From Treponema sp. (GTDB lineage Bacteria; Spirochaetota; Spirochaetia; Treponematales; Breznakiellaceae): 32,753 bases of DNA. The notes beneath the pieces were generated by a model, which saw nothing but the letters and a program-made list of their open reading frames with translations, was not told the origin of the DNA and ran no database searches. Shown here piece by piece: positions 27,269-29,572 of this stretch. Both the position numbers and the translations under genes were made by a program. The stretch covers positions 1 to 32,753 of the forward strand of contig JAITFK010000038.1 of NCBI GenBank assembly GCA_031281555.1. Reading direction: 5' to 3'. Position 1 is the first letter of the stretch, and each line of letters begins with the position of its first letter.

Positions 27269-28231
27269 CTAAAAAAGATTAATTTTGACAAGAAAACGGG
27301 TATCTAAAAACGAAAGCCCTGCGCCTGCTTCGTTGTCAATAACTTTATAATCTTTATTTTCTTTTTTGTATGATTTACCTCTGGTTTTGCCGATACGGCG
27401 GTACGCGATATCAAATGAAAAAGCAATACGGTTTATGTTTAGAGCAATATTTATTTTTGGTTCAAAAAAAAGTCCCATGCTTGTAATATCATTATTAATA
27501 TTTTTTGTTAAAATATGTTCATCCATAGCGTTACAATATGTAAACGGGCTTATTTGAAAGGATAAATCTACAGTAAAAGGGTATAAAACATTTGTCTCAA
27601 TTTCAAGACCGGCTGCAATCAAGAGCCAGTTTTGTCTGTAATTTATAACATTACCATTAAGCGGCCCCTCCCTTGGGGGATTATAATCTATATAGTAATA
27701 ATAGCCGTCTCTTCCTGTAAAAGAAAAATGCATCCAACTGCCGCTTAAGAACGATTTTACACAAATAATTGATTTTATGGGAATTGAAACACCGGCAGCG
27801 GCGTCCAGAGCAAAAAAACTATTAGTTTTGTTGATATGTCTTGAAATTCTTGTAAGATCGCTGTTTTCCTGAAACATCCAATCGCGATCTTCCATAATTC
27901 CTGAATCTTTCGGAAAGCCGGCTTTAAAAGACAGGGAAGAAAAAAAATCAATACCGCGCATAATATCGGCAGGCTTAAAATCCAACTGTAAACCAACATA
28001 ATAAACAGACTTCATATCCCATTTCAGTTCGCTGTACAATTCAGCTTTTGTTTCTCTTTGTATAGGGTTGGGGTACACATATTCAAAAGCCTGACCGTAG
28101 ATAAGTCCGGCTTGAGGGCTAACCGAAAATGTGTAACGGTTGTTTCCCGTTTCCTGACTGAATATCGGGTTAATAAAAATATATACACAATTAATGATGA
28201 CTAAAAAAGCTAAAGCGGTTATATTTTTCAT
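27269..28231 (-). CDS. Omptin-family outer membrane protease
   Basis: I start at the ATG giving MKNITALAFLVIIN, a signal peptide with cleavage near IFSQ; the open frame extends nine codons upstream. The 320-residue protein reads as a beta barrel with alternating aromatic strands and a C-terminal phenylalanine. It aligns by eye with OmpT: MEDRDWM holds Asp115 and Asp117 (OmpT Asp83, Asp85), ISRH matches the OmpT SRH segment, FTGRDGYYYYI matches its FTARGGSYIY, and AMDEHI holds Asp237 and His239 (OmpT Asp210, His212). Spacing between the pairs is 122 against 127 in OmpT. The C-terminal RIGKTRGKS and AGAGLSF stretches also match. Omptins are surface proteases cutting between basic residues, so activity is likely but unproven. 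Confidence 0.85.
   Translation of the reverse strand: MKNITALAFLVIINCVYIFINPIFSQETGNNRYTFSVSPQAGLIYGQAFEYVYPNPIQRETKAELYSELKWDMKSVYYVGLQLDFKPADIMRGIDFFSSLSFKAGFPKDSGIMEDRDWMFQENSDLTRISRHINKTNSFFALDAAAGVSIPIKSIICVKSFLSGSWMHFSFTGRDGYYYYIDYNPPREGPLNGNVINYRQNWLLIAAGLEIETNVLYPFTVDLSFQISPFTYCNAMDEHILTKNINNDITSMGLFFEPKINIALNINRIAFSFDIAYRRIGKTRGKSYKKENKDYKVIDNEAGAGLSFLDTRFLVKINLF
28197..28225 (+). promoter_or_regulatory. Candidate promoter for 28236 lipoprotein, inside omptin gene
   Basis: ATGACT (28197-28202), 17-base spacer, TATATT (28220-28225), 10 bases before the ATG at 28236. The -35 is a 4/6 match. It lies entirely within the first codons of the opposite-strand omptin-like gene. Confidence 0.35.
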
Positions 28232-28235
28232 TAAT

Positions 28236-28625
28236 ATGAGAATAACGGCTAAAAACATCTTTGGTCAATTGTTATTATTTTTTTTCATAACATCCTTGTG
28301 TTCGTGTTTATTAAAAAAAGAAGAAAACCCTGTAATTCCGCCTGAAACATCACCTTTGTCGCAGGACTATATCGGTTACGGGGTAATTACCAATTCATTC
28401 ACCCACATTACAGCCGATCCTTCGGAAGAAAGCCCTTCTTTGGGTTATTTAAGACGCGGGTCGCTTGTACGCATAATAAGAAGACAGTCCGTAAAAACAG
28501 TCAACGGGTTTATTTCATGGGTTCTTATAGAAGATTCGCAGTACGGCTGGTTAAAAGAAGAAGCAATGGATATATACAGCAGTGAAAATCAGGCTAAAAC
28601 AGCATCGGAGTCGATGACAAGGTGA
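28236..28625 (+). CDS. Lipoprotein with SH3-like region
   Basis: From the ATG at 28236 the protein has 129 residues, beginning MRITAKNIFGQ, a hydrophobic stretch and a lipobox-like LCSC; an in-frame ATG at 28194 would add 14 residues inside the omptin gene. After a proline-rich linker the region YGVITNSFTHITADPSEESP through SQYGWLKEEAMDIY has the layout of a bacterial SH3 domain, often found binding cell wall or peptides. No ribosome site precedes either ATG. Its stop overlaps the next gene as GTGA. Role unknown; pairing with the divergent omptin-like gene may be regulatory only. Confidence 0.75.
   Translation: MRITAKNIFGQLLLFFFITSLCSCLLKKEENPVIPPETSPLSQDYIGYGVITNSFTHITADPSEESPSLGYLRRGSLVRIIRRQSVKTVNGFISWVLIEDSQYGWLKEEAMDIYSSENQAKTASESMTR
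28239..28268 (-). promoter_or_regulatory. Promoter of omptin-like gene, inside lipoprotein gene
   Basis: On the minus strand TTGACC (28263-28268), 18-base spacer, TATTCT (28239-28244), then seven bases to the ATG at 28231. It would give a leaderless or nearly leaderless transcript. It lies in codons 2-11 of the divergent lipoprotein gene. Confidence 0.5.
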
Positions 28626-29572
28626 ATCGGGTTATTCTATTCTTTATTCCGCCTGTTGTAGGATGCTTTATCGGATATATTACAAATGTAATCGCGATCA
28701 AGCTGCTTTTCCGTCCGCTTAAGGAAATTCGTATACTTGGCGTGAGGCTTCCTTTTACTCCGGGTATCCTTCCAAGGCAGCGTTTCAGACTCGCGCAAAG
28801 TATCGGCGGCATGGTGGAGCGAGAGCTCTTAACCGCAGAAATTATCAGACAACGCCTTGCCCGCGACGACGTGCGCGAAAAAACACGGGACGCGATTTCA
28901 CTTTTTACCGAAAATATTCTTGCCAAATCACCGACAGAACTGCTTATAAACAACAATAATTTTTTGTCTTTAAAAATCTCAGAAGCGGCAGAAAAAATTT
29001 ATCCTCTGTTTACTTCGCTCATTCTTGAATTTCTTAACCGTTATGAAATCCGCAAAGAAATGGAATCTAAAGGGCGGATACTCTTAAGAAATATTTTTTT
29101 GAAACTCAATACTTTTCAACGCTTTTTTATTTCAGCGGGTCAATATGATATCACACTTGAACAAAAAATGCCTGAAATTATAGATGAGCTAATCGATAAT
29201 GCGCAGGAATTATTAAACGATGCAAGAGTTAAGAAAACCCTGACAGAAGCAATACTTTCCATTCCCGGAAAAAGCAAAAATCTTGCAGCGTTACTTGACA
29301 TAGGAATGGAAGATAAAAAAAAATTAGACGATTTTATTTTGGATAAATTAATTACAACCGTAGACGAAAAGATTGAAAACATACTCTCTTCTATTGATGT
29401 AAAATCACTTGTTTCAGAAAGGATAGATTCGCTTGACATGCTGCGCGTCGAAAGGATTGTCCTTGATGTAATGTCAGATCAATTCAAATGGATAGAAATT
29501 TTCGGCGGAATACTGGGGTTTTTAATAGGTTTGTTCCAGTCCGCGCTAGCTCTGTTTTTGTCCACAAAGTAA
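28622..29572 (+). CDS. DUF445-family membrane protein
   Basis: A 316-residue protein starting at GTG that overlaps the previous stop. It carries the DUF445 hallmark at the N-terminus: GYITNVIAIKLLFRP within a membrane segment, then PFTPGILPRQRFRLAQSIG. A long helical soluble region follows (about 60-285), including SEAAEKIYPL and repeated charged helices, and a second membrane helix closes the protein (GILGFLIGLFQSALALFL). Function of the family is not established; it includes proteins linked to membrane or spore processes in Bacillus. GGAG lies 11 bases upstream, a rather long spacing. Confidence 0.9.
   Translation: MNRVILFFIPPVVGCFIGYITNVIAIKLLFRPLKEIRILGVRLPFTPGILPRQRFRLAQSIGGMVERELLTAEIIRQRLARDDVREKTRDAISLFTENILAKSPTELLINNNNFLSLKISEAAEKIYPLFTSLILEFLNRYEIRKEMESKGRILLRNIFLKLNTFQRFFISAGQYDITLEQKMPEIIDELIDNAQELLNDARVKKTLTEAILSIPGKSKNLAALLDIGMEDKKKLDDFILDKLITTVDEKIENILSSIDVKSLVSERIDSLDMLRVERIVLDVMSDQFKWIEIFGGILGFLIGLFQSALALFLSTK

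What the first reader, a model, noticed from the sequence alone, without database searches (positions are those of the whole stretch)
27269..28231. Omptin-type outer membrane protease with complete catalytic set in a spirochaete
By eye the protein aligns over much of its length with OmpT and keeps both aspartate pairs and the Asp-Glu-His triplet (Asp115, Asp117, Asp237, His239), plus FTxRxGxYxY and SRH segments. Omptins are best known from enterobacteria and their activity depends on lipopolysaccharide, which treponemes are generally held to lack. A catalytically intact omptin in such a membrane would need a different lipid cofactor or a different mode of activation.
Basis: partly seen in the sequence, partly recalled or inferred. 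Interest (0 to 1): 0.75.

Follow-up and report, generated by a model that had tools for sequence, protein, structure and literature searches.

The report
Omptin and lipoprotein with interlocked promoters
A spirochaete that seems unable to make lipopolysaccharide carries an intact-looking outer-membrane protease of the omptin family, and its gene appears to share interlocked start signals with a neighbouring lipoprotein gene, each gene's promoter lying inside the other gene.

Summary

The unexpected part is the gene's start. It lies 4 bp from the start of a divergent SH3-like lipoprotein gene. Each gene's predicted promoter sits inside the first 12 codons of the other, and neither has a Shine-Dalgarno-like site, suggesting face-to-face promoters and (nearly) leaderless mRNAs. 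In 67 such pairs the elements sit at fixed positions in 54 and 57. Without the partner they are missing: 0 of 52 omptins (15 of them from this family) and all but 2 of 30 lipoprotein genes. Transcription, mutual exclusion and any effect of the lipoprotein on the protease are untested.

The parts
27269..28231 (-). omptin-family outer-membrane protease gene (320 aa, ends in Phe)
28154..28231 (-). predicted signal peptide (about 26 aa; cleavage site judged by eye)
   Evidence: translation; helix 13-29 in the model of the 329-aa form
27887..27889 (-). codon of Asp115, aligned with OmpT Asp83
   Evidence: alignments; codon position by arithmetic
27881..27883 (-). codon of Asp117, aligned with OmpT Asp85
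   Evidence: alignments; codon position by arithmetic
27521..27523 (-). codon of Asp237, aligned with OmpT Asp210
   Evidence: alignments; codon position by arithmetic
27515..27517 (-). codon of His239, aligned with OmpT His212
   Evidence: alignments; codon position by arithmetic
28236..28625 (+). divergent SH3-like lipoprotein gene (129 aa, lipobox Cys24)
   Evidence: SH3_3 below cut-off, E 0.0011; Cys24 invariant in 37 aligned sequences; model pLDDT 88.7
28232..28235 (.). the 4 bp between the two start codons
   Evidence: sequence; in 67 pairs the gap is 3 bp in 37 and 4 bp in 18
28263..28268 (-). predicted -35 of the omptin promoter (TTGACC), inside lipoprotein codons 10-11
   Evidence: scan; conserved at fixed position
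28239..28244 (-). predicted -10 of the omptin promoter (TATTCT), inside lipoprotein codons 2-3; 18 bp spacer; omptin ATG after 7 further bp
   Evidence: scan
28197..28202 (+). predicted -35 of the lipoprotein promoter (ATGACT), inside omptin codons 10-12
   Evidence: scan
28220..28225 (+). predicted -10 of the lipoprotein promoter (TATATT), inside omptin codons 3-4; 17 bp spacer
   Evidence: scan
28622..29572 (+). DUF445 gene overlapping the end of the lipoprotein gene by 4 bases, perhaps co-transcribed with it
   Evidence: PF04286 E 2.1e-35; coordinates

Best explanation
The gene encodes an outer-membrane omptin barrel, very probably an active protease that does not rely on the enterobacterial LPS site, in a lineage where no lipid A pathway was found. 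It is expressed from a sigma-70-type promoter that lies inside the first 11 codons of a back-to-back SH3-like lipoprotein gene. That lipoprotein gene is expressed from a promoter inside the first 12 codons of the omptin gene. Both mRNAs are predicted to begin at or within about 4 nt of their start codons (leaderless or nearly so). Because the two promoters face each other with start points a few bases apart, only one RNA polymerase should load at a time, so the two surface proteins are made in a coupled, alternating way. Shown by sequence: family membership, predicted fold, catalytic residues, no detected lpxC or lpxB, gene arrangement, and nucleotide-level constraint that depends on the partner. 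Inferred: proteolysis, start points, mutual exclusion, and substrates (perhaps cationic peptides or proteins around the cell).
For: PF01278 and fold. Catalytic residues in 57 HMM-found omptins: D83 54, D85 57, D210 57, H212 57. LpxC and LpxB 0 of 195. Promoter elements in 67 back-to-back pairs: omptin promoter exact in 54, lipoprotein promoter exact in 57, both in 45; slid 1-119 bases further into the genes, 0 and 1. Codon choice at element positions against the rest of the same genes: Ile4 ATA 63 of 63 vs 340 of 1130; Val11 GTC 62 of 62 vs 198 of 901; lipoprotein Gln11 CAA 58 of 59 vs 60 of 247 (pairs with another residue there are not counted). Lipoprotein residue 10 varies (Gly, Ser, Arg) while NGTCAA stays in 57 of 67. 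Partner dependence: 59 of 79 omptins beside the lipoprotein vs 0 of 52 without, of which 59 of 78 vs 0 of 15 within the family; 8 of 10 vs 2 of 30 lipoprotein genes. Pattern search: 68 matches in 65 of 195 genomes, reversed-pattern control 0. SD-like sites 0 of 67 for both genes.
Against: No transcript, protein or activity data. The element definitions were drawn from the same 67 loci on which they were first counted; searches test them further, but overlap in genomes. 22 of 67 pairs lack one or both exact elements. In 12 of 79 lipoprotein-omptin loci my script found no start pair within 12 bp. 8 of 195 genomes have the omptin without a detected lipoprotein and 15 the reverse, so neither strictly needs the other. 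13 of 30 window genes, these two included, lack an SD-like site, so its absence alone is weak evidence. Only LpxC and LpxB were sought across the family, in genomes that are largely drafts, and another anionic glycolipid is not excluded.
Confidence: 0.7

Rival explanations
1. The conserved bases around the two starts reflect protein constraint on two signal peptides or shared ancestry, not promoters.
For: Both stretches encode signal peptides, and the pairs are homologous.
Against: Constraint sits on codon choice (Ile ATA 63 of 63, Val GTC 62 of 62) and on bases while amino acids change. The elements are missing from nearly all genes without the partner. Spacings of 17 and 18 bp fit sigma-70 promoters.
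Confidence: 0.1
2. The conserved sites are operators for a regulator of both genes, with the true promoters elsewhere.
For: Matches to consensus hexamers are weak evidence by themselves: the scan found 8 promoter-like sites in 801 bases against 2.3 expected.
Against: The two boxes on each strand have -35/-10 content and spacing, and point at the start codons at the distance expected for leaderless start points. A strict leaderless pattern has 2 matches elsewhere in this genome (control 0), one of them exactly at the start of an acyl-carrier-protein-like ORF.
Confidence: 0.12
3. The protease still needs a lipid activator, but a treponemal glycolipid replaces LPS.
For: OmpT and Pla are stimulated by LPS or LOS (PMC7356225 and PMC7696990, passages). 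The position of OmpT E136 is aromatic in most spirochaete omptins examined: Tyr, Trp or Phe in 116 of 126.
Against: The LPS motif residues are also missing in 9 omptins from 7 LpxC-positive spirochaete genomes, so their loss does not track loss of LPS. Motif mutants of OmpT keep activity, which LPS still raises (PMC7356225).
Confidence: 0.3
4. The partner lipoprotein is the activator or inhibitor of the omptin, replacing LPS as its control.
For: Presence is linked across 195 genomes: 145 both, 8 omptin only, 15 lipoprotein only, 27 neither. Starts are interlocked.
Against: Linkage is inflated because neighbours are lost together in draft genomes. Lipoprotein genes persist without the omptin. 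Of 36 omptin loci that I counted as other spirochaete families, 1 (L071) had the lipoprotein gene beside it. No complex was modelled.
Confidence: 0.15

Closest known systems
OmpT (E. coli K-12) and Pla: omptin family, Pfam PF01278
   Same: OmpT/Pla-type barrel by prediction, catalytic Asp-Asp and Asp-His pairs, OmpT Glu27, Ser99 and His101 equivalents
   Different: 18.8 % identity to OmpT over 298 aligned positions; none of the five putative OmpT LPS residues is kept; D97 is Arg and D208 is Ala; LpxC and LpxB not found in its genome
Leptospira LIC20019, modelled as Pla-like (PMC5406399, passages)
   Same: spirochaete barrel likened to an omptin
   Different: in that paper a structural model; Leptospiraceae have lipid A genes (PMC3087551, passages); I did not compare the sequences
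Bidirectional bacterial promoters with a shared -10 (Warman et al. 2026, PMC12825309; abstract and introduction read)
   Same: one short DNA stretch serves two divergent transcripts, and two polymerases cannot bind at once
   Different: here two separate predicted -10 elements face each other 13 bp apart in the window, each inside the other gene's coding sequence, with predicted start points about adjacent rather than commonly 10, 18 or 23 bp apart
Leaderless bacterial mRNAs (recalled, no paper read)
   Same: promoter -10 about 6-7 bp before the start codon, no Shine-Dalgarno site
   Different: two divergent leaderless genes interlocked; start points predicted, not mapped

Membership tests
Omptin family (PF01278) | profile match above the curated cut-off | tested here: met
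   103.4 bits vs 22.6
Omptin family (PF01278) | catalytic Asp83, Asp85, Asp210, His212 | tested here: met
   Asp115, Asp117, Asp237, His239
Omptin family (PF01278) | OmpT/Pla-type barrel | tested here: met
Omptin family (PF01278) | proteolytic activity | not testable with these tools
   needs an assay
Enterobacterial omptins (PRK10993-type, LPS-dependent) | NCBIfam equivalog cut-off | tested here: not met
   38.7 bits vs 467 and 24.5 vs 580
Enterobacterial omptins (PRK10993-type, LPS-dependent) | putative LPS-binding residues Tyr134, Glu136, Arg138, Arg175, Lys226 | tested here: not met
   Gly, Trp, His, Asn, Ser here; 0 of 126 LpxC-less-group and 0 of 9 LpxC-positive spirochaete omptins keep both Arg
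Enterobacterial omptins (PRK10993-type, LPS-dependent) | dibasic specificity pocket Glu27, Asp208, Asp97 (roles recalled) | tested here: inconclusive
   Glu kept, Asp208 is Ala, Asp97 is Arg; activity not assayed
Bidirectional promoter with shared -10 | start points on either side of, or within, one shared -10 element | tested here: not met
   two distinct predicted -10 elements, 28220-28225 (+) and 28239-28244 (-)
Leaderless genes | no Shine-Dalgarno site; -10 placed for a start point at the start codon | tested here: met
   SD-like 0 of 67 for both genes; with gaps of 3-4 bp (55 of 67 pairs) the omptin -10 ends 6-7 bp before its start codon
Leaderless genes | mapped transcript 5' end at the start codon | not testable with these tools
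   no transcript data
Bacterial SH3 domain (PF08239), for the partner lipoprotein | profile match above the curated cut-off | tested here: not met
   19.5 bits vs 27, E 0.0011; best Foldseek E 6.9e-3, SH3-like domains among the rows, so 'SH3-like' only

The most novel reading that the evidence does not exclude
Spirochaetes without lipid A hold a lineage of omptins that work without LPS. In Breznakiellaceae the protease is locked, through mutually embedded face-to-face leaderless promoters, to a surface lipoprotein that takes over the control LPS exerts in enterobacteria.
Probability: 0.15. Interest if true: 0.85.

Novelty: new variant of a known kind. Interest (0 to 1): 0.6.

Why it matters
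Omptins are described mainly as LPS-activated enterobacterial proteases. In this phylum sample most of them are in genomes without LpxC (113 of 120), which makes LPS dependence testable in enzymes from naturally LPS-free membranes. The interlocked gene starts would be a compact natural switch: two genes whose promoters are each other's signal-peptide codons, so one DNA stretch carries two overlapping codes. It predicts mutually exclusive initiation, which a simple reporter can check.

Tried and rejected
A single-protein scan of genome contigs found no relative; an alignment query found 118, of which 80 were kept. A proteobacterial control set could not be centred on E. coli, so 9 omptins of 7 LpxC-positive spirochaete genomes served instead. 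LptD (PF04453) was 0 of 195, but that model did not ring in the Bacteroides control either (recalled to have LptD), so I draw nothing from it.

I first read the conserved stretch upstream of the omptin as a plain promoter. It proved to be coding DNA of a divergent gene, which led to the interlocked-promoter reading. A looser form of the motif, without the start codon, occurs once in the own genome, and its reversed-pattern control also occurs once.

Residue numbers printed are shifted through an error in my script. The residues themselves come, and the numbers in this report were corrected by hand.

Literature: omptin+treponem 9 papers, omptin+spirochaet 6, omptin+metagenom 17, seen as listings; passages read from PMC4827864, PMC8618247 and PMC5406399, and from the omptin and lipid A papers PMC7356225, PMC7696990, PMC3087551 and PMC3048539. 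None of those passages describes a treponemal omptin; unread papers may. Searches on leaderless divergent genes and bidirectional promoters were seen as listings, apart from PMC12825309; no listed title or abstract start shows a case like this.

Full report

HOW WIDESPREAD. The window lies in a 2.49 Mb draft genome of 212 contigs. The family includes Breznakiella homolactica (Spirochaetia, Treponematales, Breznakiellaceae): the omptin of G009 sits at the same coordinates as in that named record. Most of the 80 named loci kept are MAGs titled Treponema sp. PF01278 is found in 153 of 195 family genomes, and in 35 of 42 of those at least 90 % complete and at most 5 % contaminated. In a phylum sample it is in 120 of 392.

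LIPID A. LpxC was found in 0 of 195 and LpxB in 0 of 195 family genomes, while several control genomes ring. I did not seek the other lipid A genes. In the phylum sample LpxC is in 110 of 392, all labelled 'same phylum', that is, outside the window's class. Reading the two lists together, 7 genomes have both (G202, G206, G215, G227, G281, G325, G363), so 113 of 120 omptin-bearing genomes show no LpxC. These counts are confounded by phylogeny. PMC3087551 (passages) reports that T. denticola, T. pallidum and B. burgdorferi lack the Kdo2-lipid A enzymes while Leptospiraceae and Brachyspiraceae have them, which agrees.

CATALYSIS VERSUS LPS SITE. Among 57 omptins taken by HMM search (the window's plus the best 30 of each of two searches, overlaps merged), D83 is kept in 54, D85 in 57, D210 in 57 and H212 in 57. 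In the larger set of 135 distinct sequences, 121 of 126 from the LpxC-less group and 9 of 9 from LpxC-positive genomes keep all four. Limits: these are mostly best matches, not a random draw; the 80 loci were found with a pattern that contains D83 and D85; and LpxC status of those named records was taken from their group, not tested one by one. The five putative LPS residues of OmpT named in PMC7356225 (passages) are Gly, Trp, His, Asn and Ser here. In the LpxC-less group 63 of 126 keep none, 59 keep one, 3 keep two and 1 keeps three; no sequence keeps both Arg138 and Arg175. The 9 LpxC-positive sequences look the same: 5 keep none, 3 one, 1 two. So loss of this motif separates the spirochaete omptins examined from OmpT but does not track loss of LPS. 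PMC7356225 also reports that OmpT with the motif mutated keeps activity, which LPS still raises. PMC7696990 (passages) reports that Arg-to-Glu changes at two positions abolish or reduce Pla activity. The residues aligned with OmpT D97 and D208 (roles recalled) are Arg and Ala here, so dibasic cleavage should not be assumed.

THE GENE START. Many relatives share an oddly constant N-terminus (MKNI......LV). Upstream bases fitting a promoter pattern in 62 of 135 omptins turned out to be the first codons of a divergent gene. Of 109 loci with a divergent ORF of at least 60 aa, 79 have one family of SH3-like lipoproteins there (profile built from 55 of them), and in 67 of the 79 the two start codons are 0-12 bp apart: 3 bp in 37, 4 bp in 18. 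In the window the lipoprotein is 28236-28625 (+) and is followed by DUF445. Its family has an invariant lipobox Cys in 37 aligned sequences; its model has pLDDT 88.7 and only weak fold matches, with SH3-like domains among them.

INTERLOCKED PROMOTERS. Read on the omptin strand, lipoprotein codons 11 to 2 spell -35 TTGACN, 18 bp, -10 TANNNT, then usually 6-7 bp, then the omptin start codon. Read on the lipoprotein strand, omptin codons 12 to 3 spell -35 NTGACN, 17 bp, -10 TATANT, then 6 bp, then the gap before the lipoprotein start codon. In the window these are 28268-28263 and 28244-28239 (-), and 28197-28202 and 28220-28225 (+). A generic scan finds both, among 8 sites where 2.3 are expected. 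Exact elements occur in 54 (omptin) and 57 (lipoprotein) of 67 pairs, both in 45. The same definitions slid 1-119 bases further into the genes give 0 and 1. The constraint is on bases, not residues: where residue 4 is Ile it is ATA in 63 of 63 against 340 of 1130 Ile codons later in the same genes; where residue 11 is Val it is GTC in 62 of 62 against 198 of 901; where lipoprotein residue 11 is Gln it is CAA in 58 of 59 against 60 of 247; codon 10 ends in T in 61 of 67 against 1949 of 8041, while its residue is mostly Gly, Ser or Arg. SD-like sites upstream: 0 of 67 for each gene; in this window 17 of 30 genes have one.

CONTROLS BY ABSENCE. Omptin genes beside the lipoprotein gene carry the lipoprotein-promoter element in 59 of 79; omptin genes with at least 500 nt upstream and no such neighbour in 0 of 52 (4 sequences with less upstream were left out). 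Of these 52, 37 are from loci I counted as other families; within the family the split is 59 of 78 against 0 of 15. I then fetched 40 more stretches with lipoprotein genes, picked because no listed omptin adjoined them or its place was not listed, with a few exceptions. With a divergent omptin, 8 of 10 carry the omptin-promoter element; without, 2 of 30. Of those two, L219 keeps a relic omptin start, and L232 begins about 100 bases before the lipoprotein gene, at the contig end. Six others of the 30 (L209, L225, L226, L229, L230, L231) are also cut short, so some omptins there could be out of sight. A pattern for the element with its start codon gives 68 matches in 65 of 195 genomes, against 0 for the reversed-pattern control. 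By my reading of coordinates against, 61 of the 68 lie at an omptin or lipoprotein start; the other 7 (G009:C1:185904, G076, G105:C129, both of G119, G146, G164:C4) adjoin none that was listed, but the lipoprotein places of G119 and G146 were not listed. A strict leaderless pattern in the own genome gives 2 matches (control 0), one exactly at the start of an acyl-carrier-protein-like ORF and one at an in-frame ATG of a small ORF.

HOW IT PROBABLY WORKS. RNA polymerase at the omptin promoter would sit on the lipoprotein's first codons and move over the lipoprotein promoter, and the reverse. The predicted start points are about adjacent, so two open complexes should not coexist. This resembles the bidirectional promoters of Warman et al. 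(PMC12825309; abstract and introduction), in which start points lie on either side of, or within, a shared -10, commonly 18, 10 or 23 bp apart; that paper also finds that basal activity at its five tested promoters is too low for polymerase competition, so mutual exclusion here may matter only when one promoter is strong. Here there are two facing -10 elements. Alternation of the two surface proteins, or coupling of their levels, is the inferred consequence. Across 195 genomes the two genes co-occur: 145 both, 8 omptin only, 15 lipoprotein only, 27 neither (from the rows); neighbours missing together from drafts inflate this.

VERDICT. The omptin itself is a divergent member of a known family, already recognised by Pfam's model. 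What is new here, as far as my searches show, is its wide presence in a spirochaete family without detected LpxC or LpxB, with the LPS motif gone, and the interlocked gene pair with predicted leaderless starts. None of the passages I read describes either; the searches are named under Tried and rejected.

Noticed in passing
G137:C140:2486-6098: Three omptin matches in a row on one strand; some other family genomes hold 2-4 omptin matches.
   Followed up: no
L219 (G067), near the lipoprotein start: A relic of an omptin start remains beside a lipoprotein gene, which suggests loss of the protease with the shared promoter region left behind.
   Followed up: partly
L192, 1240-1503 (-): An acyl-carrier-protein-like ORF in the same genome starts 6 bp after a TATAAT with TTGACA upstream, so leaderless starts may be used elsewhere too.
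   Followed up: partly
L062, L064-L067 (LpxC-positive spirochaetes): Omptin-like proteins with Tyr (or a gap) where OmpT has Glu27 and Ser where it has His101, with the catalytic four kept; their specificity may differ.
   Followed up: no
L071 (G494, same order, another family): The only one of 36 loci counted as other families with the lipoprotein gene beside the omptin; its starts are further apart and its omptin lacks the lipoprotein-promoter element.
   Followed up: no
L081 (WRGH01000115.1): The closest named relative (71 % identity) is titled Brevinematales bacterium, while the next best hits are titled Treponema sp.; the label may be wrong.
   Followed up: no
window 28622-29572: DUF445 gene overlaps the end of the lipoprotein gene by 4 bases; I did not test whether it follows the lipoprotein gene in relatives.
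   Followed up: no
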